Assembly: GCA_016841425.1 (NCBI GenBank)
Contig: JAENZE010000002.1
Location: 62,001 to 126,000 of the forward strand
Direction of reading: 5' to 3'
From: Syntrophomonas sp.
Lineage (GTDB): Bacteria; Bacillota; Syntrophomonadia; Syntrophomonadales; Syntrophomonadaceae
DNA length: 64,000 bases
The first letter of the stretch is position 1, and the number at the start of each line of letters is the position of its first letter. The notes beneath the pieces were generated by a model. It was not told the origin of the DNA. It worked only from the letters and a program-made list of their open reading frames with translations, and searched no databases. The position numbers and the translations under genes are program-made. Shown piece after piece: positions 14,180 through 41,238 of the stretch.

Positions 14180-14205
14180 AGCCGCTTGAAAGAGCGGCTT
14201 TTTTT
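14180..14205 (+). terminator. terminator or attenuator ahead of cluster 2
   Basis: AGCCGCTTGAAAGAGCGGCT is followed by seven T. It can end cluster 1 or, given the promoter at 14054, act as an attenuator in the leader of cluster 2. Confidence 0.8.
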
Positions 14206-14236
14206 ATGTGATTTTTTAAAAAGGAGTGTTTGAGAT

Positions 14237-15298: not shown

Positions 15299-15302
15299 GT
15301 TT

Positions 15303-15713
15303 TTGGAAGCACATAAGATACAAAAAATGGCAGAGTATTGCGAAATCGAAGACATCGCCCACGCATTGCAGGTGCCAATAAACATCGTAGAAGGAGTATT
15401 AAACAACACTCTGGAGCCTGAGTTATTAGAAGATCGTAAAGCCGAGATAAAAATCATTACCGAAGAAGGGTATGAAGTGTCGGCTATGGATGCCGAAAAA
15501 CTCAAGGTCAATAGACGCAAAGAATACGTCACCCAAAAAATTGAAAATGAGATGCAATCATCTAAAAATCTTTTTTCAAGAATTGGGTTAATATTGTCCA
15601 TTGGTATTTATGTTTTAATTACCGTGATTTTACTGTGTTTCATCACGGATGCAATGGGTTATGAGAATATCTATGCCGGTTATTTGGTTAGCACCGTTAA
15701 GGGACTATTTTAA
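15303..15713 (+). CDS. small HTH-like membrane-anchored protein, cluster 2
   Basis: TTG 15303 follows AAAGGAGGTAGG within the end of the previous gene. The first 30 residues (CEIEDIAHALQVPINIVEGVL) look like a helix-turn-helix. The middle is charged, and a membrane segment (IGLILSIGIYVLITVILLCF) lies near the C-terminus, giving 136 residues in all. I do not recognise a family. Position between cpaE and the prepilin peptidase gene suggests a part in assembly or control of the cluster 2 pilus. Confidence 0.5.
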   Translation: MEAHKIQKMAEYCEIEDIAHALQVPINIVEGVLNNTLEPELLEDRKAEIKIITEEGYEVSAMDAEKLKVNRRKEYVTQKIENEMQSSKNLFSRIGLILSIGIYVLITVILLCFITDAMGYENIYAGYLVSTVKGLF

Positions 15714-15729
15714 TATAAGGGGGTAAAGC

Positions 15730-16239
15730 ATGGAAGCAGTATTTATAGGTTGCTTATTGCCGAGTTTATCCGTAATATATACCGATTTAAGGTATCGAAA
15801 GATATATAACTGGCTGACTTATCCGTTATTCCTAACAGGAATAGGGTACGCGCTTTACACTAATACAATTATGGATGCTTTGGCCGGATCAGCATTTGCC
15901 TTTGTAGTTTTTATGGTATGCGGCTTAATGGCTGGTATTGGTGGTGGGGATATTAAGCTCGCAACCGGCCTGGGTGCTTGGTTTGGTTTTAATATCTTAT
16001 ATGTAACATTGATTGGATGTTTACTAGGTGCGGTCTGGGGGATGTATAACCTTTATCAGTTAGGAACATTAAAACCTCGTTTGAAGCTATTGCTAACCGG
16101 AATATGGGTGCGAGTAGTTTATGGAGCTAAAGGGGCAATAGTTTTACCAAAACTTCCGGAAGATGACACAATTCCCCCAGAAGCAGTGCCTTTTGGGGTG
16201 CCATTAGTAATAGCGGCATGGGTGGTTGCAATTATGTGA
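15730..16239 (+). CDS. CpaA/TadV-type prepilin peptidase
   Basis: This 169-residue membrane protein has both catalytic aspartate motifs of the prepilin peptidase family: YTDLRYRKIYN near residue 20, and GIGGGDIKLA (the GxGD motif) near residue 76, in a multi-helix frame. It lacks the N-terminal methylase/zinc domain of PilD, as usual for CpaA/TadV. It is the only such peptidase seen in the element, so it probably processes the Flp pilins and pseudopilins of both clusters. Confidence 0.85.
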   Translation: MEAVFIGCLLPSLSVIYTDLRYRKIYNWLTYPLFLTGIGYALYTNTIMDALAGSAFAFVVFMVCGLMAGIGGGDIKLATGLGAWFGFNILYVTLIGCLLGAVWGMYNLYQLGTLKPRLKLLLTGIWVRVVYGAKGAIVLPKLPEDDTIPPEAVPFGVPLVIAAWVVAIM

Positions 16240-16252
16240 AAGGAGAATATAA

Positions 16253-16948
16253 ATGGATAAAAAGAAAACCATTATAACAATAGCTGCAATTATATTAGGG
16301 CTCTTGGTAGCCCTTTTTGCATGGGTTAATATAGATAAGCCGCAGGATGCAGAAGTCAATGTAAACATACTGGTCCCAACGAAAGATATAAGTCCTTATA
16401 ACAAATTACAGGCTGACGATTTTAAAACCAAAACCGTCAAAGAAAGCGAAATTGATTCCTACACGGTGATGGAATCAGCTCAGTTGCAGGATATGATAAC
16501 CACAGTTACATTATATGCAAACAAGCCGATTGACAAACGAAATCTAAATTTAGTATCCGACACCAGTAATAAACGGATTATAGGAGTGCTTATCGACTCA
16601 ACTCGATTGAGCAATGCCACTGCCGGTGACTATGTGGATGTGTACTGGGTAGGCGATAAAACAGAGACAACTGTAGCTGTGCCGCCAGCTATTCCCTTAT
16701 CTTATAAAGCACAGATAATTGCAATTGATGGTGTGGGTGGTAGTACTTCCAGTTTAAGCGTTCAAAAAGTAGCATCCGAATCCAAAATCAATTCAGTATA
16801 TTTACTGGTTAACCCGGAAGAAGCTCCATATATAATTCAGGGATCAATGAAGAACAATATTGCACTTTCTAAGGTATTAAATCCTCAATCAGCATTAGAA
16901 AAACCTTCAGTAGAAAATATAGTCGAGAAGGAGGAAGCTGATGTTTAA
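16253..16948 (+). CDS. CpaB/RcpC-like protein, cluster 2
   Basis: ATG 16253 follows AAAGGAGAA. A membrane anchor (IITIAAIILGLLVALFAWV) precedes a SAF domain (LVPTKDISPYNKLQADDF; ANKPIDKRNLN) and a C-terminal RcpC-like domain (GDYVDVYWVGD), 231 residues in all. Its last eight bases overlap the next gene, the cpaF-like ATPase, matching the usual cpaB-to-cpaF order. It is a paralogue of 9386 rather than a close copy. Confidence 0.75.
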   Translation: MDKKKTIITIAAIILGLLVALFAWVNIDKPQDAEVNVNILVPTKDISPYNKLQADDFKTKTVKESEIDSYTVMESAQLQDMITTVTLYANKPIDKRNLNLVSDTSNKRIIGVLIDSTRLSNATAGDYVDVYWVGDKTETTVAVPPAIPLSYKAQIIAIDGVGGSTSSLSVQKVASESKINSVYLLVNPEEAPYIIQGSMKNNIALSKVLNPQSALEKPSVENIVEKEEADV

Positions 16949-18272
16949 TAAAACCAAACCAATAGAAATAGCTCCTGAAATCGAAAAATATATGAGTATA
17001 CAACAGGCATCCGATTATATTCATCGTTCAGTTATTGAACAAAGCAATGATGAAAAAAATCTTGTCTTATTTCAAGAAGCCTCCGCTGGCAATCCCGAGT
17101 GTATAGCCCAGGTAAAGCAAATTATATGCGGTATATTGAATCAGCATCGAATATTCGTTAAAGACATGAATACAGCCGAAGTAGCAGAAGAAATCTATTG
17201 TTCCCAATGGGGATTAGGTAAGATTCAAAAACTGTATTATGATAACGAGATTGATGAAATAAGGGTTAATCCAAACGGCAGGGTGTTCATTTCCAGAAGA
17301 GGTAAAAACGTGCCAACAACCATAAGGATGACCAAAGAGGAAATCAAAAATCTGATTGAGCGGTTAATACCTTATACTGATCGGGGCAGCAGTTTAAACG
17401 AAAGCTCACCTAAACTTGAGTTGGTTAGACCTGACGGGATGCGAGTAACCGCCTTGTGCAGTCCGATAGTCAATGGATATGGGCTTGCCATAAGGAAACA
17501 TGGGAACATAATATTATCCGCAGAATCACTGAAAGAATTAAAGACTATGGATGATACGATCTGGAATTTACTCAGGCTTCTTATTAAGGGCCGTAGAAAT
17601 GTCCTGATAAGCGGAGGGGTTAATACCGGGAAATCTACCCTGCTAAAACTTCTTATCGGTGAATTTGCATCCAATCTATCAATACGCATACTGGATTTGG
17701 ATAACGAATTATACGCCTCCAAGATATATCCAGACCGTGATATATGGGAGCTTGAAGCACACCCGGAAATAGATGTGGATATGAACAGCCTATTCATGTC
17801 TATCTTGCGGTTAACGCCTGATGTGATCATTGTTGGGGAGTTTAGGGGGGTTGGAGAAGCAAGGGAAGCTATTAGGGCTTGTACCAGAGGTCATACCGGC
17901 TTAGCTACTGCCCATTTCTCGGAACCGGAAGAAGCAATACAGGGAACCGCTTTGATGATGCTTGAAGAAGGGATGTCGCTGGATATAGATAACGCTCAAT
18001 TACGAGTTGCTCAGGCGTTTCAGTTTGTCGTTCAAATGATTTCGGATACCAGCCAGGGTATTAAAAAGATAGTCGGCATAACCGAAGTAATAGTAACCGA
18101 TGACCGGGAAATCCAATATAATACGATTGCTAAATGGCAAGCTACCGGCAAAGATTTTATGAATGACGGGGAATGGGTACTGGTTAATCCAATATCCGAA
18201 AAGTGCATTAAAAACATGGAGATCTACAATGTGACTAAAGAAGAGTTGCAAACAATATTCGCAAAGGGGTAA
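16941..18272 (+). CDS. CpaF/TadA secretion ATPase, cluster 2
   Basis: ATG 16941 follows GGAGGAAG, overlapping cpaB. The 443 residues carry the CpaF core: YDNEIDEIRVNPNGRVFI, then LVRPDGMRVTALCSP, Walker A ISGGVNTGKSTLLKLL near residue 220, Walker B-like TPDVIIVGEFRG, and CTRGHTGLATAHF as His box. It is complete and diverged from the cluster 1 ATPase, suggesting two separate machines rather than a recent duplication. Confidence 0.88.
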   Translation: MFNKTKPIEIAPEIEKYMSIQQASDYIHRSVIEQSNDEKNLVLFQEASAGNPECIAQVKQIICGILNQHRIFVKDMNTAEVAEEIYCSQWGLGKIQKLYYDNEIDEIRVNPNGRVFISRRGKNVPTTIRMTKEEIKNLIERLIPYTDRGSSLNESSPKLELVRPDGMRVTALCSPIVNGYGLAIRKHGNIILSAESLKELKTMDDTIWNLLRLLIKGRRNVLISGGVNTGKSTLLKLLIGEFASNLSIRILDLDNELYASKIYPDRDIWELEAHPEIDVDMNSLFMSILRLTPDVIIVGEFRGVGEAREAIRACTRGHTGLATAHFSEPEEAIQGTALMMLEEGMSLDIDNAQLRVAQAFQFVVQMISDTSQGIKKIVGITEVIVTDDREIQYNTIAKWQATGKDFMNDGEWVLVNPISEKCIKNMEIYNVTKEELQTIFAKG

Positions 18273-24485: not shown

Positions 24486-27338
24486 ATGGATAGTTATAAT
24501 ATTAAGTCAACATTAAAAGAAGTTTTTGCAAAAAGTTTTATTATTTTATGTATTAGCATAGTGTTCATCCTGGGTTTTAATATCTCTAAAGCTAATGCAA
24601 TAACTTACTTATCTAAACCAGATTGGCCTAATATGGGAAATGATATTTATGCTGCAGTTATCGATGTAGATGGCAATGTATGGGCAGGTGGAGAAGGAGG
24701 ATATGTAGCATATTGGAATGGAACCACATGGACAAATGACAGTAATCCTACATCAAGTCATATAAGAGATATGAGTTTAGGTTCAGACGGTAAAGTTTGG
24801 TTTGCAGGATATTATGATGGGGAATATGTCCAGAGTTCATATACAGGATATTGGGATGGTTCATCTTGGATTACACAAAGTCACGGCAGTAATTTTGTAT
24901 ATTCTATCACAACTGGAATAGACGGTAAAATATGGATAGCAGGCAAAAACGGTTTAATAAAATATTGGAATGGCAGTAGTTGGGTATCGTTTACTTCCCC
25001 AACTACAAGTACCATAACACGTATAACAACAAGTCCCGATGGCAGATTGTGGATAGGTGACTCAGATGGTTATGTTTATTATTATAATGGCTCAAATTGG
25101 ACTGCAACGGGAAGGGTATTTGGTTCCATTTATTATGATATAGAAAAAATGGTAGCAGATAGTAATAATAATATATGGGTAATCACCTCTACTAATAGCA
25201 CTATGTCTTATTGGAACGGGAATGAATGGACAAACTATGGTAGATTTAGTAAAGGCGATATAACTATAGGTAATGAAGGTAAAATATGGAATTATCATAG
25301 TGACGGGGCTGATTATTTTAATGGAGAAGAATGGATAGAAACAGATTTTGCATGGCCTTACAGTAGTAATTCTCTAAATACTGCCGTTACTTTAGATAAT
25401 GGTAGAATATTTGTATTGGGTGAAAATGGTAAATGTGCTTATGTTAGAACAAATAATTCATTAAATCTAGTAGAAAGTAACAATGGAGCAACAGGAGAAT
25501 TTATAATTAATCCGGTAATATCATCCTTATCAGGGTTGTTATATCCATTGCAGTATTCTACTAATGGCACCGATTTTAGTGATTTAGGGATACCTAATAA
25601 TGGCACCATAAGTTTAAGTCCGACTACTAATACAGCTTATATAAGAGCAACTTTAAAACGTGAACTAAGAAAGGGAGTATTTGAAGAGTTCTATTCTAGT
25701 GTAGTAACTATAAATCCTATATTAAATTTTGATACTAATATTCAATCAGAAGCAGTAACTTGGAGCAATACTCAAGGTAAATCCAATATTACTATATCAT
25801 GGGATGCAGTAACAAACGCAGACGGATATAGATTATGGATATTTGATGGAAATGAATATAAAAGTTGCGACTTAGGCAATGTATTATCTTGGAATAGCAG
25901 TGATGCTATGATATTTCCATTTCCAGGAGAATTACCTGAAGATAATAGTATATCTACCGATTTATTTAGGTGGGATGGCTCAGGTGTAGAATTTGATGAT
26001 AAACCGAGTTCCCTTTTTAAGTCAACTATTGGCACCAGTTATGATAGTGATACTAAATATAGGTTTAAAGTTACGGCCTATAATGATTGGATGGAGACAA
26101 AACATTTATATCAAACTAGTAGAGTAGAATTAGCGCAAGCCACAGATAAAACTAATCCCTCAGCTATTTTAGATATAATAACGGCCGAGGGTTTAGAAAA
26201 GACAGCATCAAGAGATGTGATTTTATCGCTAGAAGTAACGGATGCAGGTTCGGGTGTAAAAAATGTTGGAGTATCCAATGACGGAGTTTCTTATTCAAAT
26301 GTATATGAAGAAGGACTATTGCCTGACAATTCAACTGGAGTATATTCGTATATAGACAATGTAGATTGGACACTAACAGCGGGGGCAGGCACCAAAACAG
26401 TTTATATAAAAGTTATTGATGCAGTAGAAAATGAAATTATAATATCAAAACAGGTAGCATTAGCTGATGATATTGTACCACCAGACGTTACTATAACCAT
26501 AAATAATGGGGCAGAATCAACCACAAATGCATTAGTAGATTTATATATTGATGCTTTTGATAGCAGTTCAACCGAAGATAAACTTAAAATGAGGTTCAGT
26601 AACGATGGAAGTCTATGGTCAGTATGGGAATCTTATTCCATAGACAAAGTTTGGGATATAAATAATGTTGCTTATGGAGGAAATTCTGATGTAGGTATAA
26701 AAACAGTCTATATACAAATAGCAGATGCAGCCCAAAATATTAGTTTTGCCAGAGATACAATAGGTTATAACGATACACTACCTGCAGGCAATATAACTAT
26801 TATTGGTGGTAATATAGGTACTTTTAATGGAATAGATGCCTTATATTGCAAAACTAATAGTCCTACTTTATTACTAGATTATCCAACAGCAACGTCAATA
26901 AGAATAGACAAAGGATTAGGAATATGGGGTGAATGGGAAACATATAGTGCCAATTATCCTGTGTACCTGTTATCTAGTAGCGGAGGTTGTTTAATAAGAG
27001 TACAGGTTAAAGATGTCTATGGGGTAGCTGGCGACGCTGATCATTATGTACTAGTAATAGATACCCAAAGCCCAGTAATAACATCATTAAAAGGCCAAAA
27101 CGGAGCAACAGTTACGTCTTCAAGTACCATGAATCTTAGTATAGAATACTCTGACAATATGGCTGATTTAACCTATAGTTATAATGTTAATGAAGGAGAT
27201 TGGAGCGTAGCAGAAACGCTGAGCGGTAACACAATTACTGTTTCGGGCCTATCCGCAGGAGCAAATACTATTAATGTTAAAGCGATTGATAAAGCGGGAA
27301 ATACCACTGAGAAATCGTTAGTCATTTTTATGCTTTAA
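24486..27338 (+). CDS. large secreted propeller protein with Ig-like domains
   Basis: ATG 24486 follows AAGGAGGGTC; a second ATG at 24456 with its own AAAGGGAG would add ten residues. Residues 1-38 are a signal peptide (SFIILCISIVFILGFNISKANA). Residues about 45-330 hold repeats of YWNG..W with (D/E)GK.W(I/F)AG, a Reg_prop-like beta-propeller. From about 340 follow Ig/bacterial adhesion domains with repeated DTQSPVIT-, DKTNPSA- and VYIKV-type strands. The gene is visibly more AT-rich than its neighbours, suggesting separate acquisition. It is probably the second surface adhesin of cluster 2. Confidence 0.6.
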   Translation: MDSYNIKSTLKEVFAKSFIILCISIVFILGFNISKANAITYLSKPDWPNMGNDIYAAVIDVDGNVWAGGEGGYVAYWNGTTWTNDSNPTSSHIRDMSLGSDGKVWFAGYYDGEYVQSSYTGYWDGSSWITQSHGSNFVYSITTGIDGKIWIAGKNGLIKYWNGSSWVSFTSPTTSTITRITTSPDGRLWIGDSDGYVYYYNGSNWTATGRVFGSIYYDIEKMVADSNNNIWVITSTNSTMSYWNGNEWTNYGRFSKGDITIGNEGKIWNYHSDGADYFNGEEWIETDFAWPYSSNSLNTAVTLDNGRIFVLGENGKCAYVRTNNSLNLVESNNGATGEFIINPVISSLSGLLYPLQYSTNGTDFSDLGIPNNGTISLSPTTNTAYIRATLKRELRKGVFEEFYSSVVTINPILNFDTNIQSEAVTWSNTQGKSNITISWDAVTNADGYRLWIFDGNEYKSCDLGNVLSWNSSDAMIFPFPGELPEDNSISTDLFRWDGSGVEFDDKPSSLFKSTIGTSYDSDTKYRFKVTAYNDWMETKHLYQTSRVELAQATDKTNPSAILDIITAEGLEKTASRDVILSLEVTDAGSGVKNVGVSNDGVSYSNVYEEGLLPDNSTGVYSYIDNVDWTLTAGAGTKTVYIKVIDAVENEIIISKQVALADDIVPPDVTITINNGAESTTNALVDLYIDAFDSSSTEDKLKMRFSNDGSLWSVWESYSIDKVWDINNVAYGGNSDVGIKTVYIQIADAAQNISFARDTIGYNDTLPAGNITIIGGNIGTFNGIDALYCKTNSPTLLLDYPTATSIRIDKGLGIWGEWETYSANYPVYLLSSSGGCLIRVQVKDVYGVAGDADHYVLVIDTQSPVITSLKGQNGATVTSSSTMNLSIEYSDNMADLTYSYNVNEGDWSVAETLSGNTITVSGLSAGANTINVKAIDKAGNTTEKSLVIFML

Positions 27339-27368
27339 AACGGCATGATCAGATACAGACTATTAAAG

Positions 27369-27398
27369 GCCCTGGGTTAAATACCCGGGGCTTTTTTT
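27369..27398 (+). terminator. rho-independent terminator, end of cluster 2
   Basis: GCCCTGGGT-TAAAT-ACCCGGGGC is followed by seven T. Confidence 0.88.
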
Positions 27399-27430
27399 AT
27401 GGACAGAATTACAACGAAAGGAGTTAATGT

Positions 27431-27601
27431 ATGGCAAAAAAACCTACTAGAAAGCAAAGTATTCTGATAGGTAAAAGCGGGTTGAAACCTGAAAACTGGC
27501 TGGTTATCAAGAATCCGGTTGGAATGCTGTATATAAGACATCGCAAAACCGGGACCTTGAAGGTGATCAAAAAACCAGTGTCTTATAACAAGGAAGGGTG
27601 A
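27431..27601 (+). CDS. small basic protein (DUF6906-like)
   Basis: ATG 27431 is seven bases after AAAGGAG. The 56-residue product reads TRKQSILIGKSGLKPENWLV near its start, then MLYIRHRKTGTLKVI. This pattern (TRKQK.L...GL.P.NWLV ... HR.TG) recurs in a small Firmicute phage/mobile-element protein family that I remember as DUF6906; function unknown. It precedes and almost abuts the HD-GYP gene and is probably co-transcribed with it. Confidence 0.6.
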   Translation: MAKKPTRKQSILIGKSGLKPENWLVIKNPVGMLYIRHRKTGTLKVIKKPVSYNKEG

Positions 27602-27604
27602 AAG

Positions 27605-28192
27605 ATGGCCAGTATGTCGCAACCAATAGTTAATCAAAGTGAACAACAGATGGGTTTACATTTTTTAAGTCGGCTCAAACATTATGATTTGGATACGTAT
27701 CTGCACAGCTGCAGGGTAGCCAAACTATCACTCATGATTGGAAAAAGCATCGTCTTTAATGAGTTAATTATCAAGAATATTTATTATTCGGCACTTTTCC
27801 ATGACATAGGGAAAATAAAAATACCTAAACGCATTTTACATAAAACTACCCGGCTAAGTAATGATGAATGGGCTGAAATCCAAAAACACTCCCAATATGG
27901 GGTAGGACTTCTCAGGGGGTATCCATCGGAATTAATGACGGAGGATTTATTAAATTGCGTTTATCACCACCATGAGCATTATAGTGGCACAGGTTATCCT
28001 GATGGACTTCGGGGAGAGGATATTCCTGTTCCTGCCCGTGTAATAAGCGTAGCCGATGCCTTAGATGCGATGATTAACCCCCGTCCATACCGACAAATTC
28101 CCTTGTCGTATTATGAAGCTATTGGAGAGTTACAAATACACGCCGGTTCGCAATTTGACCCTTATATTATCAAGAAGATCAGTTGCTTATAA
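27605..28192 (+). CDS. stand-alone HD-GYP domain protein
   Basis: ATG 27605 follows GGAAGGGTGA. The 195 residues are almost entirely one HD-GYP domain: YSALFHDIGKIKIPKRIL (HD metal site), then YHHHEHYSGTGYPDGLRGEDIP (GYP motif) and ISVADALDAMINPRPYR. Conserved metal ligands appear intact. Such enzymes typically break down cyclic di-GMP. There is no sensor domain. Sitting at the end of a pilus/adhesin region, it could tune pilus or adhesin activity through c-di-GMP; that is inference. Confidence 0.85.
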   Translation: MASMSQPIVNQSEQQMGLHFLSRLKHYDLDTYLHSCRVAKLSLMIGKSIVFNELIIKNIYYSALFHDIGKIKIPKRILHKTTRLSNDEWAEIQKHSQYGVGLLRGYPSELMTEDLLNCVYHHHEHYSGTGYPDGLRGEDIPVPARVISVADALDAMINPRPYRQIPLSYYEAIGELQIHAGSQFDPYIIKKISCL

Positions 28193-28216
28193 AATCTCAA
28201 AAGGAGGAACGAAATT

Positions 28217-29206
28217 ATGTTTAAAGTTGGATTGGATATTGGTTATGGCCACACCAAGGTGGTCACAGAAGATGGGAAAAGAATCATATTCCCATCAATC
28301 GCAAAGAAAGGCGAAGCCATTGAGTTAGATAACCTGTTAGGTGCGAAAGAGGATTATATCATAAATATTAATGGCACCACATGGTATGTCGGGGAAATGG
28401 CTCAAAAAGAAAGCTCATTCGCCACCAGAGCATTTGAACAGACTGACAGGTATAACGATGAGGCTTTCCAGACAATGCTCTCCACCGCTCTGTCATTAGC
28501 CACACAGGGAGCAAACCAAGACGTAATGCTGGTCACTGGTCTGCCGTTGTCGATTTACGAAACTTCGCAAAAAGAGTTTTGTGGTTTCCTAAAGGGCTTT
28601 TCGGCACATACAGAATTAGGTGGAATCAGCCAAGAAGTGAAGGTGAAAGAAGCGATTGTATTTCCCCAGGCCGGCGGCATATTCTTCAGCCCTTCCTGTG
28701 TGAACATTAAGAAGGATCTGCCCGAAAATAGCCTTGTTACGGTAATTGATATAGGTTATCGGACAACTGACTGTGCTAGTTTTAATTTTTCCAAAGGGTC
28801 ATTTCATTTCCTGATTGAAAATAGTTTTACCCTGGATATTGGTATGTCAAGCGTCTTTAGACCGCTGAGCCGGGCTATTGCAAAAAAGATTGGTAGTATT
28901 GATATAAGCCTTGAGGAAAGCGAAAACGTATACCAGAAGGGTGTTTGTTTCAAGAACAATAAACCCGTAGATATGTCCGATGAAATCAATATGCTTAAAA
29001 ATTCTATAGCGGCCAACATCAACGAAGGATACCGCAGTAATGCCGGGCAAGGGGCAAAGATAAACAACATCATCCTGGCTGGTGGAGGCAGCATAGCTTT
29101 AAGAGATGAGCTGCTTAACATCTTCCCGGAAGCGATCTCGGTTGCCGACACCCAGATGGCTAATGCTTTAGGTTTCTTATCTATAGCAAACAGATTTGAC
29201 TTATAG
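28217..29206 (+). CDS. parM: actin-like ParM-family partition ATPase
   Basis: ATG 28217 follows AAAGGAGG. The 329-residue protein shows the actin-superfamily motifs: phosphate 1 (VGLDIGYGHTKVV), phosphate 2 (VTVIDIGYRTTDCASF) and the adenosine loop (NIILAGGGSIALRDEL). Length and layout match plasmid ParM/StbA/Alp-type proteins that push DNA copies apart. A block of short repeats follows immediately and then a small DNA-binding-like gene, completing a type II partition locus. Finding it on an integrated element suggests the element has, or had, an episomal phase. Confidence 0.8.
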   Translation: MFKVGLDIGYGHTKVVTEDGKRIIFPSIAKKGEAIELDNLLGAKEDYIININGTTWYVGEMAQKESSFATRAFEQTDRYNDEAFQTMLSTALSLATQGANQDVMLVTGLPLSIYETSQKEFCGFLKGFSAHTELGGISQEVKVKEAIVFPQAGGIFFSPSCVNIKKDLPENSLVTVIDIGYRTTDCASFNFSKGSFHFLIENSFTLDIGMSSVFRPLSRAIAKKIGSIDISLEESENVYQKGVCFKNNKPVDMSDEINMLKNSIAANINEGYRSNAGQGAKINNIILAGGGSIALRDELLNIFPEAISVADTQMANALGFLSIANRFDL

Positions 29207-29212
29207 CATTAA

Positions 29213-29473
29213 TGCAGCACACGCTCAAGCCTTGATATCAGGGTATTTGCGGGGTATTGCAGCACACAACAAAATACGGCACTTAAATTATCATACTAAA
29301 TGCAGCACACAGAGCCGTATTTTAATATTGGTGCAGCACACGCTCACGCCTTGGTATATGGGCATTTAAAAGGTGTTGCAGCACACATTTTTTTGCAGCA
29401 CACAGCAAAAAGGTAAATGCAGCACACAATGCCCCGTGAATCCCCTTACATCGAGGGCTTGCTGTGTGCTGCA
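29213..29473. repeat. parC: TGCAGCACAC repeat block, putative parC centromere
   Basis: TGCAGCACAC occurs seven times in direct orientation (29213, 29258, 29301, 29332, 29377, 29394, 29418) and once inverted (29464-29473). Two longer copies of about 55 bp share a GCTCA-GCCTTG-TAT core (29213-29267 and 29332-29386). AAAATACGGC at 29271 is inverted at 29314. No gene fits here. Position between parM and a ParR-like gene marks this as the probable ParR-binding centromere. Confidence 0.75.
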
Positions 29474-29523
29474 GGGTGTTTTAAAGCGCATTGCCATAGT
29501 AAACACAGGAGGGTGAGGGCATT

Positions 29524-29805
29524 ATGGAAAGAAGTACCGTTCGCGTGGTTCTATACTTTTCTAAGGATCATCCTATCGCACAATACCGAAGTAAAGAGCG
29601 TAATAGGGTGGTAAAAGATTGGATAGAACAGGCATTGGCTTTAGAAAAGTCAATAAAAGAAATACAGACCGATGTTAAATCCATTAAAGAGATCTTAAAT
29701 GGGGGGGAAAACCAAACATTAATACCCACCCCGAAACATACCGCAAACACCGAGTTATCGGATGCAGACATTAATTTAATAGATCAGATGTTGGGTTTTA
29801 AGTAA
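29524..29805 (+). CDS. parR: ParR-like small DNA-binding adaptor
   Basis: ATG 29524 follows AGGAGGGTGAGGG. The 93-residue protein begins RSTVRVVLYFSKDHPIAQYR, consistent with a ribbon-helix-helix DNA-binding N-terminus, followed by a charged coiled-coil-like helix (LEKSIKEIQTDVKSIKEIL) and an acidic C-terminal motif (DADINLIDQMLGFK), the type of tail that ParR uses to contact ParM filaments. Partnering with the upstream repeats and ParM is inferred from size and position. Confidence 0.65.
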   Translation: MERSTVRVVLYFSKDHPIAQYRSKERNRVVKDWIEQALALEKSIKEIQTDVKSIKEILNGGENQTLIPTPKHTANTELSDADINLIDQMLGFK

Positions 29806-29821
29806 GGAGGATATTTTTTAT

Positions 29822-30094
29822 ATGAACAAAAACGAACTTATCAATGTCGTTGCCACACAGTTAAGTAAGAGTAGGCAAGAAGCTGAGGCTTTTATAAATA
29901 CTTTTATTGATGTGGTCAGTGGGGAAATCGCCCGGGGCAACCGAGTCCAAGTAACCGGTTTTGGGACATTCGAGAGAAAACTAAAGCCTTCCAGAGAGGG
30001 ACGAAACCCCAAAACTGGTGAGTCACTGCAAATACCCGCTAAATATCACCCTGTTTTTAAGGCGGGCAAGGTTTTTAAGGAACTATGTAACTAA
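29822..30094 (+). CDS. HU-family DNA-binding protein
   Basis: ATG 29822 follows AAGGAGG. The 90-residue protein is a full HU: MNKNELINVVA, then GTFERKLKPSREGRNPKTGE and a closing VFKAGKVFKELCN. The DNA-bending arm and its Arg/Pro residues (RNPKTGESLQIPA) are intact. It lies directly after parR in the same orientation, and may assist partition, replication or recombination of the element. Confidence 0.92.
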   Translation: MNKNELINVVATQLSKSRQEAEAFINTFIDVVSGEIARGNRVQVTGFGTFERKLKPSREGRNPKTGESLQIPAKYHPVFKAGKVFKELCN

Positions 30095-30192
30095 ATATCT
30101 TTATTCACTTGAAGAAGGGGGTGAATATTACAACTTAATCAGAAGTGATGTAAACTATATATAAATCTCGAATTTAAGGAGGAAAGAACCAC

Positions 30193-30927
30193 ATGAATAA
30201 CACAATTGGAGAAATTGTTAAAGGAAGAGTAATTGCAATTACACCGGAACCAGAACAGATAGTATTGACAGTCCGTTTATCGGAGAAAGAAAACGCCTTA
30301 TTGCCGGCATCTGAAGTCGGGATAGAGAATATACAAAGCAGTAATAACTTACGGGCAACCGCTCGCAGATTGATAGGCCGTCCGATTGTAGGGAAAGTAA
30401 TAGATACTAACCCCTTAACTATATCGAACAAACAGGCGATTGAAGAGCTTGAGCAATCAAGCAGCCTTGAAGTTGGGCAGGTATTCGATGGCATCGTAAT
30501 TAGCGTAAATGAAACCGAAGCCCAAATAGAATACAATTCATACTTAATGACCGTATTACCCCAAGAAGAGATGGGCATTATGCCGGGTACCAACTTGAAA
30601 ATGATCTTGAAATACGGCCAGAGGTTGCGGGTTGAGGTTATTGACGTGAAGGATGGTAAGTATATCGTTTCTCATAAGAAATTCTTACAGGACAAGGATG
30701 AATGGGAGGAACGCATTAACAAATATCAGGTTAAAGGCCAGTATTTAGGTATGGTAACAAACTTTATTAAAAACGGAGTATTTATTAACCTGGAACCTGG
30801 GATAGATGTACTTTGTTCGCCACAACCGGAATGGTTTGAACTCCAACGCGGAGACGAAGTGATTATTGAAATCACCGATAAAAATTCAAAGATCAAAGGG
30901 ATTGTCACCGGGAAAGCTTTTCTTTAA
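30193..30927 (+). CDS. S1-domain RNA-binding protein
   Basis: ATG 30193 follows AAGGAGG. The 244 residues hold three S1-type OB folds: residues 1-75 (GEIVKGRVIAITPEPEQIVL), 92-160 (GQVFDGIVISVNETEAQIEY) and 178-243 (GQYLGMVTNFIKNGVFINLEPG). S1 domains bind single-stranded RNA, as in ribosomal protein S1. The third is the best match. Its role on a mobile element is unknown. An inverted repeat just downstream probably ends this transcript. Confidence 0.75.
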   Translation: MNNTIGEIVKGRVIAITPEPEQIVLTVRLSEKENALLPASEVGIENIQSSNNLRATARRLIGRPIVGKVIDTNPLTISNKQAIEELEQSSSLEVGQVFDGIVISVNETEAQIEYNSYLMTVLPQEEMGIMPGTNLKMILKYGQRLRVEVIDVKDGKYIVSHKKFLQDKDEWEERINKYQVKGQYLGMVTNFIKNGVFINLEPGIDVLCSPQPEWFELQRGDEVIIEITDKNSKIKGIVTGKAFL

Positions 30928-30991: not shown

Positions 30992-31627
30992 ATGGAGTTA
31001 AAAGATATTACAGTATTAGACAAAGACATTATCAAGGAGTTTGAAACTCTTAACATTGAGCAAAAAGAGTACCTATTCAGTATGGCTGAGCAAATGTACC
31101 AAAGCTTTGGGCAACTACTTGTTTACAGCTACCTGGACAGCCCCGAGTATATTGCGCAAAACTGGGCTATGGCAGACGATGAAAACCCAGGTATAGTGGA
31201 AACGAAGATACTCGATGATCCGTACCGGATACATATATTCATCAATCAAATACCAGAGCATCTAAGGGCATATAAACGGTCTAAATTCTCCAAGGAAATT
31301 GGGTTTTCTAAAGAACGGCAACGGTGGTTTTTATTAATGAAAACCGCTTTTCGAGAACTCAAAAAACAGGGCTTAAAACCCTTTGGTGAAGAAAAAGTGG
31401 TAGCCATGTATAAATTCCATTTTCTAAAAAAGACGGATTCTGATAACTACACGATCAGCCAGATAAACAATACCTTTCGTGATGTAGGTTTAATAAAAGA
31501 CGACAATATAAATTATCTAGCAACCTTCTGTGATGGGAAAGTAAATCCTAAAAAACCCGGCGTAGAAATTACCCTTTTAAAAGAGGTCGATTTTGGCATT
31601 TATTGCCATTATTTAACTCAAAAATAG
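30992..31627 (+). CDS. RusA-like endonuclease candidate
   Basis: ATG 30992 follows GAGGTGATA. The 211-residue protein is unremarkable at its N-terminus. Its C-terminal half has TDSDNYTISQINNTFRDVGL, then IKDDNINYL and GVEITLL, following the RusA Holliday-junction resolvase pattern (D.DN ... D ... GL..DD..I ... GV.I.I) with its catalytic Asp residues. The order and spacing fit, but the first 100 residues are longer than in typical RusA (about 120). It would act in DNA recombination or replication of the element. Confidence 0.5.
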   Translation: MELKDITVLDKDIIKEFETLNIEQKEYLFSMAEQMYQSFGQLLVYSYLDSPEYIAQNWAMADDENPGIVETKILDDPYRIHIFINQIPEHLRAYKRSKFSKEIGFSKERQRWFLLMKTAFRELKKQGLKPFGEEKVVAMYKFHFLKKTDSDNYTISQINNTFRDVGLIKDDNINYLATFCDGKVNPKKPGVEITLLKEVDFGIYCHYLTQK

Positions 31628-32051: not shown

Positions 32052-33113
32052 ATGATGGCAAGAACATGGTCAAGACAAGAGGGCGATTTAAAAATATTAG
32101 AGGCATTACATAAGTATAAATACTTGAGAGGGAAAGTGCTAACGAAGATATCGGGTTACACACAAGCAAAAGGTCATGACCGAATATCTGCATTAAAAAG
32201 ACAGGGGTTAATAATTGGTGAAGCATATGTTAAACAGGAAAAAGCGGCCACCAGGGTAGTTAATAAAAAAGTTGCTGCAATATATTATTTAACAACCAAG
32301 GGGTTAGTAACTATCAAAACCATTTTAGGAGAAGAAGTAAACGGAGAAGAAAGGGGAAGGAAACCTAGCGAGGAAGAAAAAGAACGAGCATATCGAGCAA
32401 GCCTGCTTCTTGAAGGTTTAAGCGACATATATGATACCTTTTCAGCCCCTGCAGGGTATAAAATCAAACAAGATATACCGAACTTTGTCCCAATCGGCTT
32501 AGTAAACAGAAACACTCTTATATTTTTTGATAAACCTGAAAAAAGCCGAAATATGATCTCCAAGATAGTTACTGAATGTCACCGATTACAGGAACGCTTT
32601 CAGAGCCATGAGACGCTGATCCTAACAACAGATGAACGAAAGCGTAACAATTTTGTCAGTTATAGCATCGAACACTATGGTCAAACCGAGCGTATACTCG
32701 CCCAGGATGATTATACCGGCATACGATACCTATTAGCCCCCGACCAGGAGTTTAAGAACTACTTTATAAGCAGCGGAATCGAAATAGAAGAATTAGATAA
32801 GCCGTATGATGGCTGTTCTTATATCATAGATAGAGAAATGGCAAACATATTCGATGTAGTAGGACTGCCGGCAAAAACCCTCCGCAGGGTAAAACGAACC
32901 AATGGGAAAATCTATTTATTGGTGAGCAACGACAGGGAGAGAAAAACGCTTTACAAACACTACCCCGAGTACCAAGACAACGAAGATACCGTAGTAATTG
33001 AATTAGGCAGGCAAATATTACTTAACCATGAGGCATTTACCATTAAAGAAGAACCCCTGCAGGGTGAAGATAAATGGGCCAAAGCGCTTCAAGGTTACGC
33101 ATCGCAAAACTAA
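32052..33113 (+). CDS. replication-relaxation-like winged-helix protein
   Basis: AAAGGAG precedes ATG 32052, with ATG 32055 equally possible. The 353-residue protein begins WSRQEGDLKILEALHKYKYL, then a winged-helix pattern (QAKGHDRISALKRQGLI ... YYLTTKGL), as in the replication-relaxation family of Gram-positive plasmids and conjugative elements. The remaining 230 residues are not recognised; they may be a nuclease-like domain (HETLILTTDERKR). It is followed at once by the coupling ATPase gene, so a transfer or replication role is likely. Confidence 0.55.
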   Translation: MMARTWSRQEGDLKILEALHKYKYLRGKVLTKISGYTQAKGHDRISALKRQGLIIGEAYVKQEKAATRVVNKKVAAIYYLTTKGLVTIKTILGEEVNGEERGRKPSEEEKERAYRASLLLEGLSDIYDTFSAPAGYKIKQDIPNFVPIGLVNRNTLIFFDKPEKSRNMISKIVTECHRLQERFQSHETLILTTDERKRNNFVSYSIEHYGQTERILAQDDYTGIRYLLAPDQEFKNYFISSGIEIEELDKPYDGCSYIIDREMANIFDVVGLPAKTLRRVKRTNGKIYLLVSNDRERKTLYKHYPEYQDNEDTVVIELGRQILLNHEAFTIKEEPLQGEDKWAKALQGYASQN

Positions 33114-33130
33114 GGAGGGAGGGAGGACTT

Positions 33131-34888
33131 ATCGCTTTAAAACTCAATTTAGGGCAAATGTTAAATCTGATGCTGTTATTGACAGCTGCCGTACTGTTTA
33201 CAGTAACCATAATAGCCCTAACCCCCGTTTCAACTATATGGCTATTTATACTTCTACTGGGAGCTATAATAAGCACAATAGTATTAAGACAGATACGAAC
33301 ATTGGGAACCGTGGGAATAATAGTAATTGCCCTATATACAGCACCAATGCTAGTTGCAGGGTATACAAGCCTATCCCCCGACCTGCAATCATCCGGGGAA
33401 TTAGTTGCTCGTATTTACTGCGCAGCCTTACTATTAGGAGCCATAGTATTCAATGTATATCACAAGGACCAGGATGAAACGGCATTAAGCGGACTAAACA
33501 TCACGATGCCGCAGATAACAAAAAGCAAAATAGACAGCGATGCAATACTCCATCCCTCGGTAGAGATATGCCGTAAAGCTAACAATCCAATGCAAAGGAT
33601 AGAGATAAGCGGCAAAGACCGGTATTTACATACACTGTTAATAGGCTCAACCGGCACAGGTAAAACATCAGCCGTATTACAGCCATCCGTCTGGCAGGAT
33701 CTATTGAGCTACAAAAACGGTCAACAGTTAGGGATAACCGTAGTAGCCCCAGACGCAGAGTTTTGTCATACAGTACGGGACTGGTGCAAGGCATTAGGAA
33801 TACCCTATGCGATAATCGACCTAGACGATCCTAACACCAGCAGATTTAATCCGTTGGAAGGCGATCCAATCATCGTATCGGAAATAATGAGAACAGTATT
33901 AAGGGCAACTTTTGGGGAGCAGGAAGCATTTTTTGCCCAGGCACAGGAATTACATGCCAAGAACACCATGATGCTGTTAAAACGATTAAAAGGGAATAAC
34001 CTTACCCTACTAGATGTTTACAATTCCTTAATGGACATAGAAGGAGTGCAGAATGATGTCGACGAATACATCAGATTATTTGGTACCGACATAGTAACCA
34101 CCTATTTCCAGAAAGAAGCATTTGGTAAGAACAGGGACAAGCTGCATCAATTTGCTATGGGTCTTCGGATGCAAATATCAGACTTACTGGCCAATGATAC
34201 CGTATATAACGTACTGGTAGGGAAATCCGACATAGATCTGGACCAGCACATGAACGAAGGCGGCGTGTTATTGGTTAACACAGCATTAGGTAAAATGGGA
34301 CATATGAGCAGAACCTTCGGGCAATTTCTAATCATGCACATCCAGAATGCAGTATTCAGGAGGCCGGGAACCGAGTTTACGCGCATACCCCATTACCTAT
34401 ACATAGACGAACTGCCGGTGTATTTCAATCCGGAGCTGGAAAATCTTTTGAACATGGGGAGGAAATACCGTTGTGCCTGTACCTTTACCATCCAGGGTCC
34501 ATCACAGTTAGAGAAAGGCAAGCAGGGGCAAGCCATGCGAGAGATAATTATCAACGGCTGCCGTAACAAGATAGTAATCGGCATCGAATCATCGAAAGAC
34601 GCCAAATTGGTATCAGAGTTATTGGGTGAGAATAAAGACAAAGAAGTAAGAGTAACCAAGAAACGATTTAACCTACTACCGGAATCTTATTCTGAAACCG
34701 ATAAAGACATTAAGAGATTTACTTATACTGATGTATTAGAGATACCGCCGTGGCATGGATTAGTCAAAGTTGTGCATGACGGCCGGAACACCGAACCGAC
34801 ACTTGGTAAATTTACAGAACCGTGGCTATTCCAGGAACAAGTGAACAAAGAGTTAAGAAAACTTCAACGGCATCAATTAATATCCTAG
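33131..34888 (+). CDS. VirD4/TraG-type coupling ATPase
   Basis: The open frame begins at ATG 33074, inside the previous gene, behind GGGTGA; but a much stronger AAGGAGGGAGGGAGG (33114-33126) precedes ATC 33131, which I prefer. Two N-terminal membrane segments (MLNLMLLLTAAVLFTVTIIA; LFILLLGAIISTIVL) are followed by Walker A LLIGSTGTGKTSAVLQ, Walker B PHYLYIDELPVYF and a TraG-C-like region (YRCACTFTIQGPSQLEKGKQ). About 585 residues. Such proteins feed DNA-protein complexes into a type IV secretion channel. No relaxase or VirB set is in the window. Confidence 0.8.
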   Translation: MALKLNLGQMLNLMLLLTAAVLFTVTIIALTPVSTIWLFILLLGAIISTIVLRQIRTLGTVGIIVIALYTAPMLVAGYTSLSPDLQSSGELVARIYCAALLLGAIVFNVYHKDQDETALSGLNITMPQITKSKIDSDAILHPSVEICRKANNPMQRIEISGKDRYLHTLLIGSTGTGKTSAVLQPSVWQDLLSYKNGQQLGITVVAPDAEFCHTVRDWCKALGIPYAIIDLDDPNTSRFNPLEGDPIIVSEIMRTVLRATFGEQEAFFAQAQELHAKNTMMLLKRLKGNNLTLLDVYNSLMDIEGVQNDVDEYIRLFGTDIVTTYFQKEAFGKNRDKLHQFAMGLRMQISDLLANDTVYNVLVGKSDIDLDQHMNEGGVLLVNTALGKMGHMSRTFGQFLIMHIQNAVFRRPGTEFTRIPHYLYIDELPVYFNPELENLLNMGRKYRCACTFTIQGPSQLEKGKQGQAMREIIINGCRNKIVIGIESSKDAKLVSELLGENKDKEVRVTKKRFNLLPESYSETDKDIKRFTYTDVLEIPPWHGLVKVVHDGRNTEPTLGKFTEPWLFQEQVNKELRKLQRHQLIS

Positions 34889-36540: not shown

Positions 36541-38088
36541 ATGGAAGAAACATTATTTGATCTCAGCGGAATTGAGCAAATCATCAAAGATACCCGCAGA
36601 GGAATATTATCACTTCGGGCAATGGCGCCCATTTTTACGCAAGAGGAATGGGATGCCCAGACTCAAGAAATCAAAAAGGGCATTTTGCCGACCCAGATGC
36701 AATGTGATAACACAATATATCTTCAGGGCAAAAATGATCATGATATCGGTGTCTTGGGAATAGTGGAACTCCGTGAACGAATAAGCTATCTTTTTGAACT
36801 GGTATTATGGTGTGACCCGAGAGACATAGAGGATCAAGACTGGTCTTTATATGATGAGCAGCTCAAATGGTGTTTAAGTTTAGCAGCTGGCACAAAAGAA
36901 CCTTTGCCGGCAGTAGCCACCGTACATAATATTGCTGAGTTGGATGGAGTAATCAAAGATATTATAGATACTTATCTAGATCCAGCGATGGAAGGGACAC
37001 CCTGGAAGCTAGCAGTTTCATGGGGAAAAGACTCGACCTGTATGGTAAAAGCCATTTTAGAAGCACTAAGCCAGTTAAACTCAAATCAATGGCAGCGGCC
37101 CATTCATCTGGTGACTTCGGATACTAGTATCGAGATACCTTTAATGTTAAACATCATGCGAAAAAACATGAAGGACATGGCAGGGTATATTGAATCAACC
37201 GGTTTGCCAGTATTTTTGCATATGGTCCAGCCCACAATGCCGGAACGATTTTTCGTTAATCTAATCGGTAAGGGTTATACGCCACCGATGGGAGGCCCTG
37301 TGAAACGCTGGTGTACCAGTAGGTTGAAACTCAAACCCATGCAGCGGCTGGAAAAAGAGTTAGCTTATAACGGACAGATGATCAATGTAATTGGAACCCG
37401 TTATGATGAAAGCGCCAGCCGGGAAACATCTATAAAGAAATTTGAAAGTAATACCAGATACGGTTATACAACAAGCCCGGGCATATATTCATACGCACCC
37501 ATAGTCCAATTAACCACCGAAAAAGTATGGGATTACCTGAGAGAAGGATTGCCCTGGGGGAATAACTATCAAATACTAGAAGAACTCTACCGAGCAAGTT
37601 CGCTCGATGATAGTTTGATAAACGGAGGCAGGATGGGATGTATAACCTGTTTTGCGGTAAGCAAAGACAAATCTCTGGCTAATCTAATTGCGAACGGTTA
37701 TGAATGGCTGCAGCCACTACTGGAATACCGGCAGATCATTCTTGATACCGTAGCCAATCCGATATATCGGGAACCAGTACCGATTGATCGGAGAACAGCG
37801 CTACCGACTACAAGGAAGGCTCGTAATCCCGCCAAAGTAACCATGGGCGGGATCAACCAACTGGGTAGACAATATCTTCTACATAGACTATTGGAAACCC
37901 AGGATAAAGTATTGGCCGGGATGAAGCAAGCAGGATTTGAGGTAGAAGGCGGGTACCAGATAATATCCACCGAGGAAATCCGCTACATCAAGTCTTGGTG
38001 GAACTGGCTATCGAGTTATACCGAGCCAGGCCTTATTCCAGTAGAGGTAATCAAAAAACCCGATAATCGGCAAATGGCACTATTCTAA
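36541..38088 (+). CDS. orphan DndC/PAPS-reductase-like enzyme
   Basis: ATG 36541 follows AAAGGAGC. Residues 1-150 are unknown. From about 155 the protein has a PP-loop (LAVSWGKDSTCMVKAIL), then TSDTSIEIPL, FFVNLIGKGYTPP and RWCTSRLKLKPMQRLE, a sequence of motifs very close to DndC of DNA phosphorothioate systems and its PAPS-reductase relatives. Cys residues at RWC and at MGCITC could hold an iron-sulfur cluster. No dndB, dndD or dndE lies nearby. It may act alone on an unknown sulfur chemistry or in partnership with host genes. Confidence 0.7.
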   Translation: MEETLFDLSGIEQIIKDTRRGILSLRAMAPIFTQEEWDAQTQEIKKGILPTQMQCDNTIYLQGKNDHDIGVLGIVELRERISYLFELVLWCDPRDIEDQDWSLYDEQLKWCLSLAAGTKEPLPAVATVHNIAELDGVIKDIIDTYLDPAMEGTPWKLAVSWGKDSTCMVKAILEALSQLNSNQWQRPIHLVTSDTSIEIPLMLNIMRKNMKDMAGYIESTGLPVFLHMVQPTMPERFFVNLIGKGYTPPMGGPVKRWCTSRLKLKPMQRLEKELAYNGQMINVIGTRYDESASRETSIKKFESNTRYGYTTSPGIYSYAPIVQLTTEKVWDYLREGLPWGNNYQILEELYRASSLDDSLINGGRMGCITCFAVSKDKSLANLIANGYEWLQPLLEYRQIILDTVANPIYREPVPIDRRTALPTTRKARNPAKVTMGGINQLGRQYLLHRLLETQDKVLAGMKQAGFEVEGGYQIISTEEIRYIKSWWNWLSSYTEPGLIPVEVIKKPDNRQMALF

Positions 38089-39328: not shown

Positions 39329-40840
39329 ATGAGAGCAGCAATTTATATAAGAGTTAGCACTGAAGAACAGGCATTACATGGGTATAGTCTGGCAGACCAA
39401 GCTGAAGCTTGCAGGGCAAGGGCCAAAGAACTGGGAGCCACTATTATTACCGAGTATTTCGATGAAGGAATTACAGGGAGTACATTAGATCGCCCAGGAT
39501 TAGAAAAACTTAGAAATAATATAAAACAAGGACTAATAGATTATGTAATCATCCTTGATCCAGACCGTTTTAGTAGGAAATTATCACATCAGCTTTTACT
39601 TACAGAAGAATTTGAAAAAGCCGGTGCAACATTAGTTTTTATTAATTTTGAATGGGTAGACTCACCGGAAGGTAGGATGTTTTATTCAATCAAAGGTGCT
39701 GTATCTGAGTATGAAAGAGAAAAAATTAAAGAACGAATGATTAGAGGAAAAAATCAAAAGGCTAAACAGGGCGGCATGCCGATAAATTTTACTTTATTTG
39801 GATATGACTATGATGCCGAGAATGGGGTTCAGATTAATCAGAATGAAGCTGAAGTTGTAAAAAACATTTATGATGCTCTTACTAAAGATAACATGAGCCC
39901 TGCTGCCATAGCGATACATCTTACAGAATCCGGTATCCCGACAAAGAAAGGAAAAACATTTTGGTTTCGACAAACAGTAAGACAGATTTTACTTAACCCG
40001 GCATATTACGGCGAATGGCCTTATAAAAGAAATACAGATAAACCAATAATCATACCGGTACCACCTATAATTGATAAGGAAACATGGGATAAAGCTCAAG
40101 AAATATTAAAAGAATCTAAAAGATTATGGGCAAAAAGAGGAAAGCAAGACTACCTGTTATCGGGCATTGTTACATGTTTGGATTGCGGTACACCGATGGG
40201 AGGGGCATTCAAAAACAATTGGGGTAAAAAAGTCCGATACTATACTTGCGCAAAGTCGCCATCTACTAATCGTATTTCTGGTTGTTCCCCTATTAAATCC
40301 ATTAACGCAGATAGCCTGGAGTATAATGTATGGGAAAAAGTAAAGAAATTTTTGCAAAATCCTGACGAGATTCTGATAGAAGCCAGGAACAACCTACCTG
40401 TGCAAGAAGGATTGACTGATGAATTAGAAAATATCACTGGGCGACTGCAGAACATAGATAAAGGCCGCAAATCCTTAATTGATGCACTCGCCAGTGGTTC
40501 CTTGGATCTTGATGAAGATATAAATGAAAAATTACAATATATAAAAAAGCAAAGGCTATTTTTAATCAACCGCAAAATTGAAATAGAGAAAACTCTACAG
40601 GTATCAAATAATTCAGGTCAGATTTTTTCGGAATTATATCAGGTGTCAAAAAGCATTGCAGATGGGTTGGATAATATTGACTTTGATACAAAGCAATCAA
40701 TCATAAGAAGTCTTGTTTTGCAAGTTTTGGTTACAGGTAGAATAAGTACAACGAATCATAAGATAGACGAATTGCCGGGAGTAAACGTTAAACTTAGTTT
40801 AAACCTAAATCCACAATCCTTACCGGCAATTTCGGATTAA
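39329..40840 (+). CDS. large serine recombinase (SpoIVCA-like)
   Basis: ATG 39329 follows TTAGGTGAG. The 503-residue protein has the resolvase domain with catalytic Ser in YIRVSTEEQ, then GSTLDRPGLEKL, ILDPDRFSRKLS and SEYEREKIKERM; a recombinase domain (FTLFGYDYDAENGVQINQNE; IPTKKGKTFW); a zinc ribbon (CLDCGTPMGG ... YYTCAKS) and a coiled-coil region. All are features of large serine integrases. It ends with TAATG, overlapping the ATG of the sigma-K fragment. By analogy with SpoIVCA it should excise the element in the mother cell and rejoin sigK. Confidence 0.9.
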   Translation: MRAAIYIRVSTEEQALHGYSLADQAEACRARAKELGATIITEYFDEGITGSTLDRPGLEKLRNNIKQGLIDYVIILDPDRFSRKLSHQLLLTEEFEKAGATLVFINFEWVDSPEGRMFYSIKGAVSEYEREKIKERMIRGKNQKAKQGGMPINFTLFGYDYDAENGVQINQNEAEVVKNIYDALTKDNMSPAAIAIHLTESGIPTKKGKTFWFRQTVRQILLNPAYYGEWPYKRNTDKPIIIPVPPIIDKETWDKAQEILKESKRLWAKRGKQDYLLSGIVTCLDCGTPMGGAFKNNWGKKVRYYTCAKSPSTNRISGCSPIKSINADSLEYNVWEKVKKFLQNPDEILIEARNNLPVQEGLTDELENITGRLQNIDKGRKSLIDALASGSLDLDEDINEKLQYIKKQRLFLINRKIEIEKTLQVSNNSGQIFSELYQVSKSIADGLDNIDFDTKQSIIRSLVLQVLVTGRISTTNHKIDELPGVNVKLSLNLNPQSLPAISD

Positions 40841-41238
40841 TGGGCCACTTTAAAGATTACGCATATCAAGGAATTGACATTGAAGTTCTCATGCATTTAC
40901 GGAACCTGAAAAAGAAACGAACTGAGGTTTCCATATACGACCCTATTGGTTATGATAAGGAAGGCAATGAAATAGCCTTAATTGATATTTTAGCTGAAGA
41001 TAATGAAATAATAGATATGGTAGATATGAAACTGCAAGGAGAAAAAATCCTTTCCAAGATTGATGTGCTCAGTGAAAGAGAACGTCAAATTATCGAGATG
41101 CGTTATGGGGTCTTTAATGGCTTGAAAGAACCACAGCGTGAGATAGCTCGTAAGATGGGGATATCCAGATCATATGTCTCCCGCATCGAAAAACGGGCTT
41201 TAAAAAAGCTGATTAGGGAGCTGAGTACAGAATCCTAA
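40840..41238 (+). CDS. sigK: 3' half of sporulation sigma factor K (SpoIIIC-like)
   Basis: The 132-residue frame reads, from residue 14, IEVLMHLRNLKKKRTEVSI, then YDPIGYDKEGNEIALIDIL. It compares well with B. subtilis SigK as I recall it (ILMHLRALKKTKKDVSLHDP). It ends with the region 4 helix-turn-helix (QREIARKMGISRSYVSRIEK). Regions 1-2 and the pro-sequence are missing, which is the state of spoIIIC beside skin. The first 11 or so residues come from the element. On its own it cannot be an active sigma factor; excision would fuse it to the 5' half outside the window. A terminator follows. Confidence 0.85.
   Translation: MGHFKDYAYQGIDIEVLMHLRNLKKKRTEVSIYDPIGYDKEGNEIALIDILAEDNEIIDMVDMKLQGEKILSKIDVLSERERQIIEMRYGVFNGLKEPQREIARKMGISRSYVSRIEKRALKKLIRELSTES
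40858..40900. other. probable recombination (att) site of the element
   Basis: Similarity to SigK begins around ATTGACATTGAAGTTCTCAT (IDIEVLMH), so the strand exchange must lie close to here. The exact core cannot be placed without the left end. Confidence 0.55.

What the first reader, a model, noticed from the sequence alone, without database searches (positions are those of the whole stretch)
28217..30094. parM-parC-parR order with centromere between the two genes, plus HU
An actin-like ParM is followed by eight copies of TGCAGCACAC and then a ParR-like protein and HU. In plasmid R1 the centromere precedes parM; here it lies between. A partition locus on an element integrated in sigK suggests an episomal phase or plasmid ancestry.
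Basis: partly seen in the sequence, partly recalled or inferred. Interest (0 to 1): 0.68.

Follow-up and report, generated by a model that had tools for sequence, protein, structure and literature searches.

The report
Actin-type partition locus, centromere mid-operon
A large mobile element sitting inside the sporulation gene sigK carries a plasmid-style DNA segregation system (actin-like ParM, adaptor ParR) whose DNA attachment site lies between the two genes, and relatives across the Clostridia and one free plasmid share this unusual layout, which suggests the element spends time as a segregating circle.

Summary
parM (28217-29206) is followed by eight perfect TGCAGCACAC boxes, seven direct and one inverted (29213-29473; 0.05 expected in the window), then a ParR-like gene (29524-29805) and HU (29822-30094). 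Most likely this is a type II (ParMRC) partition locus on an integrative conjugative element of at least about 150 kb that splits sigK; the split is shown by complementary sigK halves and an intact sigK in a sibling species. The element also carries T4SS, coupling and replication genes. The centromere position is not a local oddity. Among 22 related loci, repeat arrays lie downstream of parM, mostly directly before parR, and never convincingly upstream. Box sequences differ between loci, as do the ParR N-termini. Where inserted genes push parR 2.6 kb away, the array has moved with parR. A free conjugative plasmid, pY0017, has the same layout. SXT/R391 SrpMRC is the closest functional precedent. 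HU is not part of the conserved unit. ParR binding, filament formation and an episomal phase are inferred, not shown. New variant of a known kind.

The parts
27605..28192 (+). HD-domain (HD_5) gene directly upstream of parM, probably co-transcribed (24 nt gap); HD-like genes also lie near parM in several relatives
   Evidence: Pfam HD_5 3.1e-33; synteny
28217..29206 (+). parM: actin-like ATPase
29213..29473 (+). putative centromere (parC): eight perfect TGCAGCACAC, seven direct and one inverted, start-to-start spacing 45, 43, 31, 45, 17, 24, 46
29524..29805 (+). parR-like adaptor: extended N-terminus + helices (RHH-like topology), low-confidence linker, C-terminal helix
29822..30094 (+). HU/IHF-family protein of the element (42% identical to a second HU-like gene on C19); not conserved beside parM-parR, possible accessory
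30193..30927 (+). S1-domain protein; similar-looking genes occur near parM-parR in relatives
30992..31627 (+). RusA-like protein (weak PHROG match 2e-5); similar-looking gene follows parR in several relatives
32052..33113 (+). winged-helix-like protein of the conserved module (by eye), no family match
33074..34888 (+). conjugative coupling protein (VirD4/TraG type)
   Evidence: Pfam T4SS-DNA_transf 8e-13; 66% identical relative 3 kb from parM in G032
39329..40840 (+). large serine recombinase, presumed integrase/excisionase at sigK
   Evidence: Pfam Resolvase 6e-37, Recombinase 8e-21
40873..41238 (+). 3' half of sigK, right end of the element

Best explanation
This is a type II (actin-type, ParMRC-like) partition locus on a sigK-integrated integrative conjugative element of at least about 150 kb. 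When the serine recombinase excises the element and its own replication proteins copy it, ParR dimers bind the eight TGCAGCACAC boxes between parM and parR. They present their C-terminal helices to growing ParM filaments, and filament growth pushes sister circles apart so that neither daughter cell loses the element before it reintegrates. The centromere belongs to the parR unit: it lies just 5' of parR, moves with parR, and its box differs from locus to locus as the ParR N-terminus does. ParR binding is therefore expected to control parR rather than parM, which seems to be read from upstream. Shown: gene and array anatomy, integration in sigK, transfer and replication genes, conserved layout. 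Inferred: ParR binding, filament formation, circle segregation, regulation.
For: ParM family and nearest solved relative, pCBH ParM. Array far above chance and confined to this gap. Arrays downstream of parM in relatives with different repeat words: TGTTAACA x14, TGTTTACA x6-7, TGTATTACA, TGTCCGACA x5, TGGTGCCA x5, GGTAGTAA x6. Of 22 loci, 12 exceed all 200 shuffles downstream and none upstream. In G039 the array (GTTAACA x6, 0/500 shuffles) sits directly before a parR displaced 2.6 kb from parM, while its close ParM sibling G041 has array and parR next to parM. Conjugative plasmid pY0017 has the same order with TGACGGCA x4. ParR-like proteins share a C-terminal hydrophobic helix after a variable linker. 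sigK split exactly, with an intact sigK in a sibling. T4SS and coupling genes. Replication genes: DnaD/RepO-like protein, beta clamp, ligase, primase-like, NRDD. Functional precedent in SXT/R391 ICEs: SrpMRC stabilises the ICE and SrpR binds repeats in srpC (PMC4489591).
Against: No binding, polymerisation or stability data. The ParR-like protein matches no known ParR family by sequence, and structure comparison is weak: pB171 ParR was the only Foldseek match, E 4.5; VIA Z 2.4. RHH membership rests on topology and position. Some parM loci lack a clear array (G023, G044, G046, G048). The two arms of the element lie on different contigs. No excised circle was seen.
Confidence: 0.8

Rival explanations
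1. The boxes are mainly an operator: the small RHH-like protein binds them to repress its own gene and the genes after it, and segregation is secondary or lost.
For: The array lies directly 5' of parR in most loci and moved with it in G039, as an autoregulatory operator would.
Against: Eight to fourteen dispersed boxes exceed what a simple operator needs. The same unit sits beside an intact parM on ICEs and on a plasmid. In R1-type systems one array serves as both centromere and operator (own knowledge), so the two roles do not exclude each other.
Confidence: 0.1
2. The boxes are replication-origin iterons bound by an initiator of the element.
For: Repeat arrays of this size occur in plasmid origins (own knowledge), and the element has replication genes.
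Against: No initiator gene is beside the array; the candidate DnaD/RepO-like gene is on the other arm. The array travels with parR, and its sequence differs between loci as ParR does.
Confidence: 0.05
3. A chromosomal ParM system with a role other than segregation of mobile DNA, as suggested for cParM loci of Desulfitobacterium and C. botulinum, or a vestigial plasmid remnant.
For: Genome-encoded ParMs are described and their role is open (PMC12270681). The locus is currently chromosomal.
Against: It lies inside a mobile element with transfer, recombination and replication genes, and many relatives lie near T4SS or coupling genes. All ORFs and all eight boxes are intact, which argues against decay.
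Confidence: 0.05

Closest known systems
SrpMRC of SXT/R391 ICEs (PMC4489591)
   Same: Actin-like ATPase plus small basic DNA-binding protein plus repeats, on an ICE; shown there to stabilise the ICE
   Different: srpC lies upstream of srpM with four 13-bp repeats; here eight 10-bp boxes lie between the genes. Different element family (Clostridia, sigK, serine recombinase)
ParMRC of plasmids R1, pB171, pSK41, pCW3
   Same: ParM fold, small adaptor, direct repeats of 10-20 bp
   Different: parC usually upstream of parM in those systems (PMC9426499); here it precedes parR
pCBH ParMRC (PMC6599009)
   Same: Nearest ParM with a solved structure (5e-30). By the published coordinates ParM and ParR are 474 nt apart
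   Different: The authors placed parC upstream of ParM. The gap was not inspected here (see referred steps)
Genome-encoded cParMR of Desulfitobacterium and C. botulinum (PMC12270681)
   Same: ParM-ParR pair on a chromosome of a Clostridia member
   Different: C. botulinum cparC follows cParR; no conserved cparC was identified for the Desulfitobacterium system. The word 'mobile' does not occur in that paper, so the mobile-element context appears not to have been examined there
Sulfobacillus plasmid pY0017 parM locus (NC_016040)
   Same: parM, array (TGACGGCA), small ParR-like gene in the same order, on a circular conjugative plasmid
   Different: Autonomous plasmid, distant ParM (27%), different box

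Membership tests
Type II (ParMRC) partition system | Actin-like ParM ATPase | tested here: met
   ALP_N and MreB-like_C Pfam domains, pCBH ParM 5e-30, PHROG partition protein, nucleotide motifs DIGYGHTK, DIGYRTTD and AGGGS conserved
Type II (ParMRC) partition system | Adjacent small RHH-type adaptor ParR | tested here: inconclusive
   Adjacent 93-aa gene with RHH-like topology and C-terminal helix; no family match, weak fold matches to pB171 ParR and, for a relative's model, other RHH proteins
Type II (ParMRC) partition system | cis-acting array of repeats next to the genes | tested here: met
   Eight perfect boxes; arrays in relatives. That they act in cis is not tested
Type II (ParMRC) partition system | ParR binds parC; ParM polymerises; locus stabilises a replicon | not testable with these tools
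   Needs EMSA, polymerisation and plasmid-loss assays
R1-like parCMR order | Centromere upstream of parM | tested here: not met
   No repeat cluster in 600-800 nt upstream of parM in the window; none above all shuffles upstream in any of 22 loci
Integrative conjugative element | Integration by a site-specific recombinase at a defined site | tested here: met
   sigK split into complementary halves, serine recombinase abutting the 3' half, intact sigK in a sibling
Integrative conjugative element | Conjugation genes | tested here: met
   Coupling protein, TraG/VirB4-type ATPase, PrgI, M23/SLT peptidase. A relaxase was not identified
Integrative conjugative element | Excision as a circle and transfer | not testable with these tools
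   No reads; arms on two contigs

The most novel reading that the evidence does not exclude
In a broad lineage of Clostridia mobile elements the centromere is genetically part of a parC-parR cassette that evolves and moves as a unit independently of parM, and this ICE uses it to segregate an excised, self-replicating circle of at least about 150 kb that leaves sigK during sporulation, so that the element's inheritance is tied to spore formation.
Probability: 0.2. Interest if true: 0.65.

Novelty: new variant of a known kind. Interest (0 to 1): 0.45.

Why it matters
Partition loci on ICEs are rarely documented; in SXT/R391 one was shown to matter. Here a conserved centromere position before parR, rather than before parM, gives a simple rule for finding ParR genes and centromeres, which are otherwise hard to recognise because they diverge so fast. 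It also ties a large sigK-resident element with its own replication genes to plasmid-like inheritance, which can be tested in culture.

Tried and rejected
Viral contigs: no relative of the ParM found. Close ParM relatives in plasmid or phage collections: none at 60% identity or more; the listed rows are 24-28%. Profile search for ParR in PDB: no meaningful match; the relatives' ParR-like genes also gave no curated Pfam match, only weak RHH_1 and Plasmid_stab_B hits in two. A ParR search across 397 genomes found one other similar gene with no parM seen in the 3 kb fetched. Promoter and terminator scans gave nothing above chance in 27300-30300, so an own promoter for parR could not be named. HU as a conserved part was rejected by synteny. 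A replication-iteron reading was considered and ranked low. The label 'array between genes' shows no significant clustering on the ParM tree. G307's best 8-mer (AAATAAAG) is AT-rich and not counted as good evidence though it is one of the 12; G307 and G432 are near copies.

Full report
Observation. parM (28217-29206) is an intact 329-residue ORF of the actin-like ALP family. Its nearest solved relative is pCBH ParM, 5e-30. Six nucleotides after its stop begins an array of eight perfect TGCAGCACAC boxes, seven direct and the last inverted (29213-29473). Chance predicts 0.05 in the window. The rest of the 3.58 Mb genome has five isolated copies, and the reversed control pattern has none. No imperfect copies sit in the array. 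An 84-nt direct repeat (75% identity, 119 nt apart) suggests that part of the array grew by duplication. The ParR-like ORF 29524-29805 and HU 29822-30094 follow.

The element. sigK is cut in two. Nucleotides 1-342 of the compared stretch lie at G000:C22:89180-89521. Nucleotides 322-687 lie at G000:C3:102873-103238, which is window 40873-41238. A species of the same genus has the gene intact. A large serine recombinase abuts the 3' half. The arms run 47 kb to the end of contig C22 and 103 kb from the start of C3, so the element is at least about 150 kb if they belong together. The complementary sigK halves argue that they do, but the join is not assembled. The element carries a coupling protein, a TraG/VirB4-type ATPase and other T4SS-type genes. 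Its left arm has a DnaD/RepO-like protein, beta clamp, NAD ligase, 5'-3' exonuclease, thymidine kinase, anaerobic ribonucleotide reductase and a primase-like protein. Autonomous replication is therefore plausible, though not shown.

Relatives. Two ParMs at 46% identity lie in Syntrophomonas, in the same family as the window's genome. Twenty-two loci were compared. Using the best 8-mer in 800 nt on either side of parM against 200 dinucleotide shuffles, 12 loci exceed every shuffle downstream and none upstream. Two more are marginal, and G028 is significant only within its short gap. The words differ: TGTTAACA (14 copies in G429), TGTTTACA (G284, G411, G041), TGTATTACA (G038, G432), TGTCCGACA (G022 and L065), TGGTGCCA (G032), GGTAGTAA (G180), and GGAGTACA placed after parR in G355. 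ParR-like proteins whose first strand reads F/I-R-x mostly go with TGT-N-ACA type boxes. The window's and its nearest relatives' strands differ, and so do their boxes; this pairing was judged by eye and is confounded by kinship.

A natural test. G039 and G041 have nearly identical ParMs. In G041 array and parR follow parM directly. In G039 other genes stand between, and parR lies 2.6 kb downstream; six GTTAAC sites, 0/500 shuffles for the best 7-mer, lie directly before that parR and none near parM. The array thus belongs to parR. The layout also occurs on a circular conjugative plasmid, pY0017, which fits exchange between plasmids and ICEs.

Surroundings in relatives. T4SS or coupling genes lie on the same contig within about 3-50 kb of parM in G032, G028, G284, G307, G432, G411, G180 and G355 (with parM places). 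So residence on conjugative elements is common in this group.

ParR. The protein has no significant family match. The model (mean pLDDT 77) shows an extended N-terminus, helices, a low-confidence linker and a C-terminal helix; a relative's model has the same order with a clearer first helix. The only Foldseek match was ParR of pB171, at E 4.5, and VIA gave Z 2.4. For the relative's model the weak matches include the RHH proteins Reg576 and ParD2. These are hints, not proof. The C-terminal hydrophobic helix (window INLIDQMLGFK; relatives DILGM, DILNL, DILSL and similar) recurs across otherwise divergent proteins. In R1 the ParR C-terminus contacts ParM (own knowledge).

Mechanism. ParR on the boxes would seed ParM filaments that separate excised sister copies. 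SrpMRC does this job for SXT/R391. Since parM follows the HD gene by 24 nt and no promoter-like site was found between parM and parR, ParR feedback would act on parR and later genes rather than on parM; this is inference.

Literature. The usual position of parC is upstream of parM (PMC9426499). The genome-encoded C. botulinum system has cparC after cParR (PMC12270681). A full-text search for the phrase 'between parM and parR' found one paper, on C. perfringens plasmids; the parC of pCW3 described there is upstream of parM. The library lacks most subscription papers, so absence of a description is not proof of novelty.

Noticed in passing
G000:C3:51569-55493 (left of the window): Gabija pair GajA/GajB on the element (PADLOC 7e-227 and 4e-172).
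   Followed up: partly
G000:C3:47865-49786 (left of the window): DarG/DarT-like toxin-antitoxin pair on the element (PADLOC 5e-59 and 6e-19).
   Followed up: no
window 36541-38088: DndC-like/PAPS reductase-family protein; no other Dnd genes were looked for (PADLOC 3e-69).
   Followed up: no
window 5967-18272: Run of Tad/type II-secretion-like genes (T2SSE twice, T2SSF, SAF, AAA) inside the element.
   Followed up: no
G002 and G004 (same genus): sigK is also split in two other species of the genus, with the 3' part starting at a contig end near residue 114, so sigK may be a hot spot for insertions.
   Followed up: no
L062 (G393:C42): ParR-like gene preceded by GGTGTGAC-type repeats (by eye), with no parM seen in the 3 kb fetched.
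   Followed up: no
window 7348-8601 and G000:C22:101564-102883: RRXRR/HNH-type protein in the window (Pfam RRXRR 1e-67) and an ORF that looks similar on the left arm (by eye).
   Followed up: no
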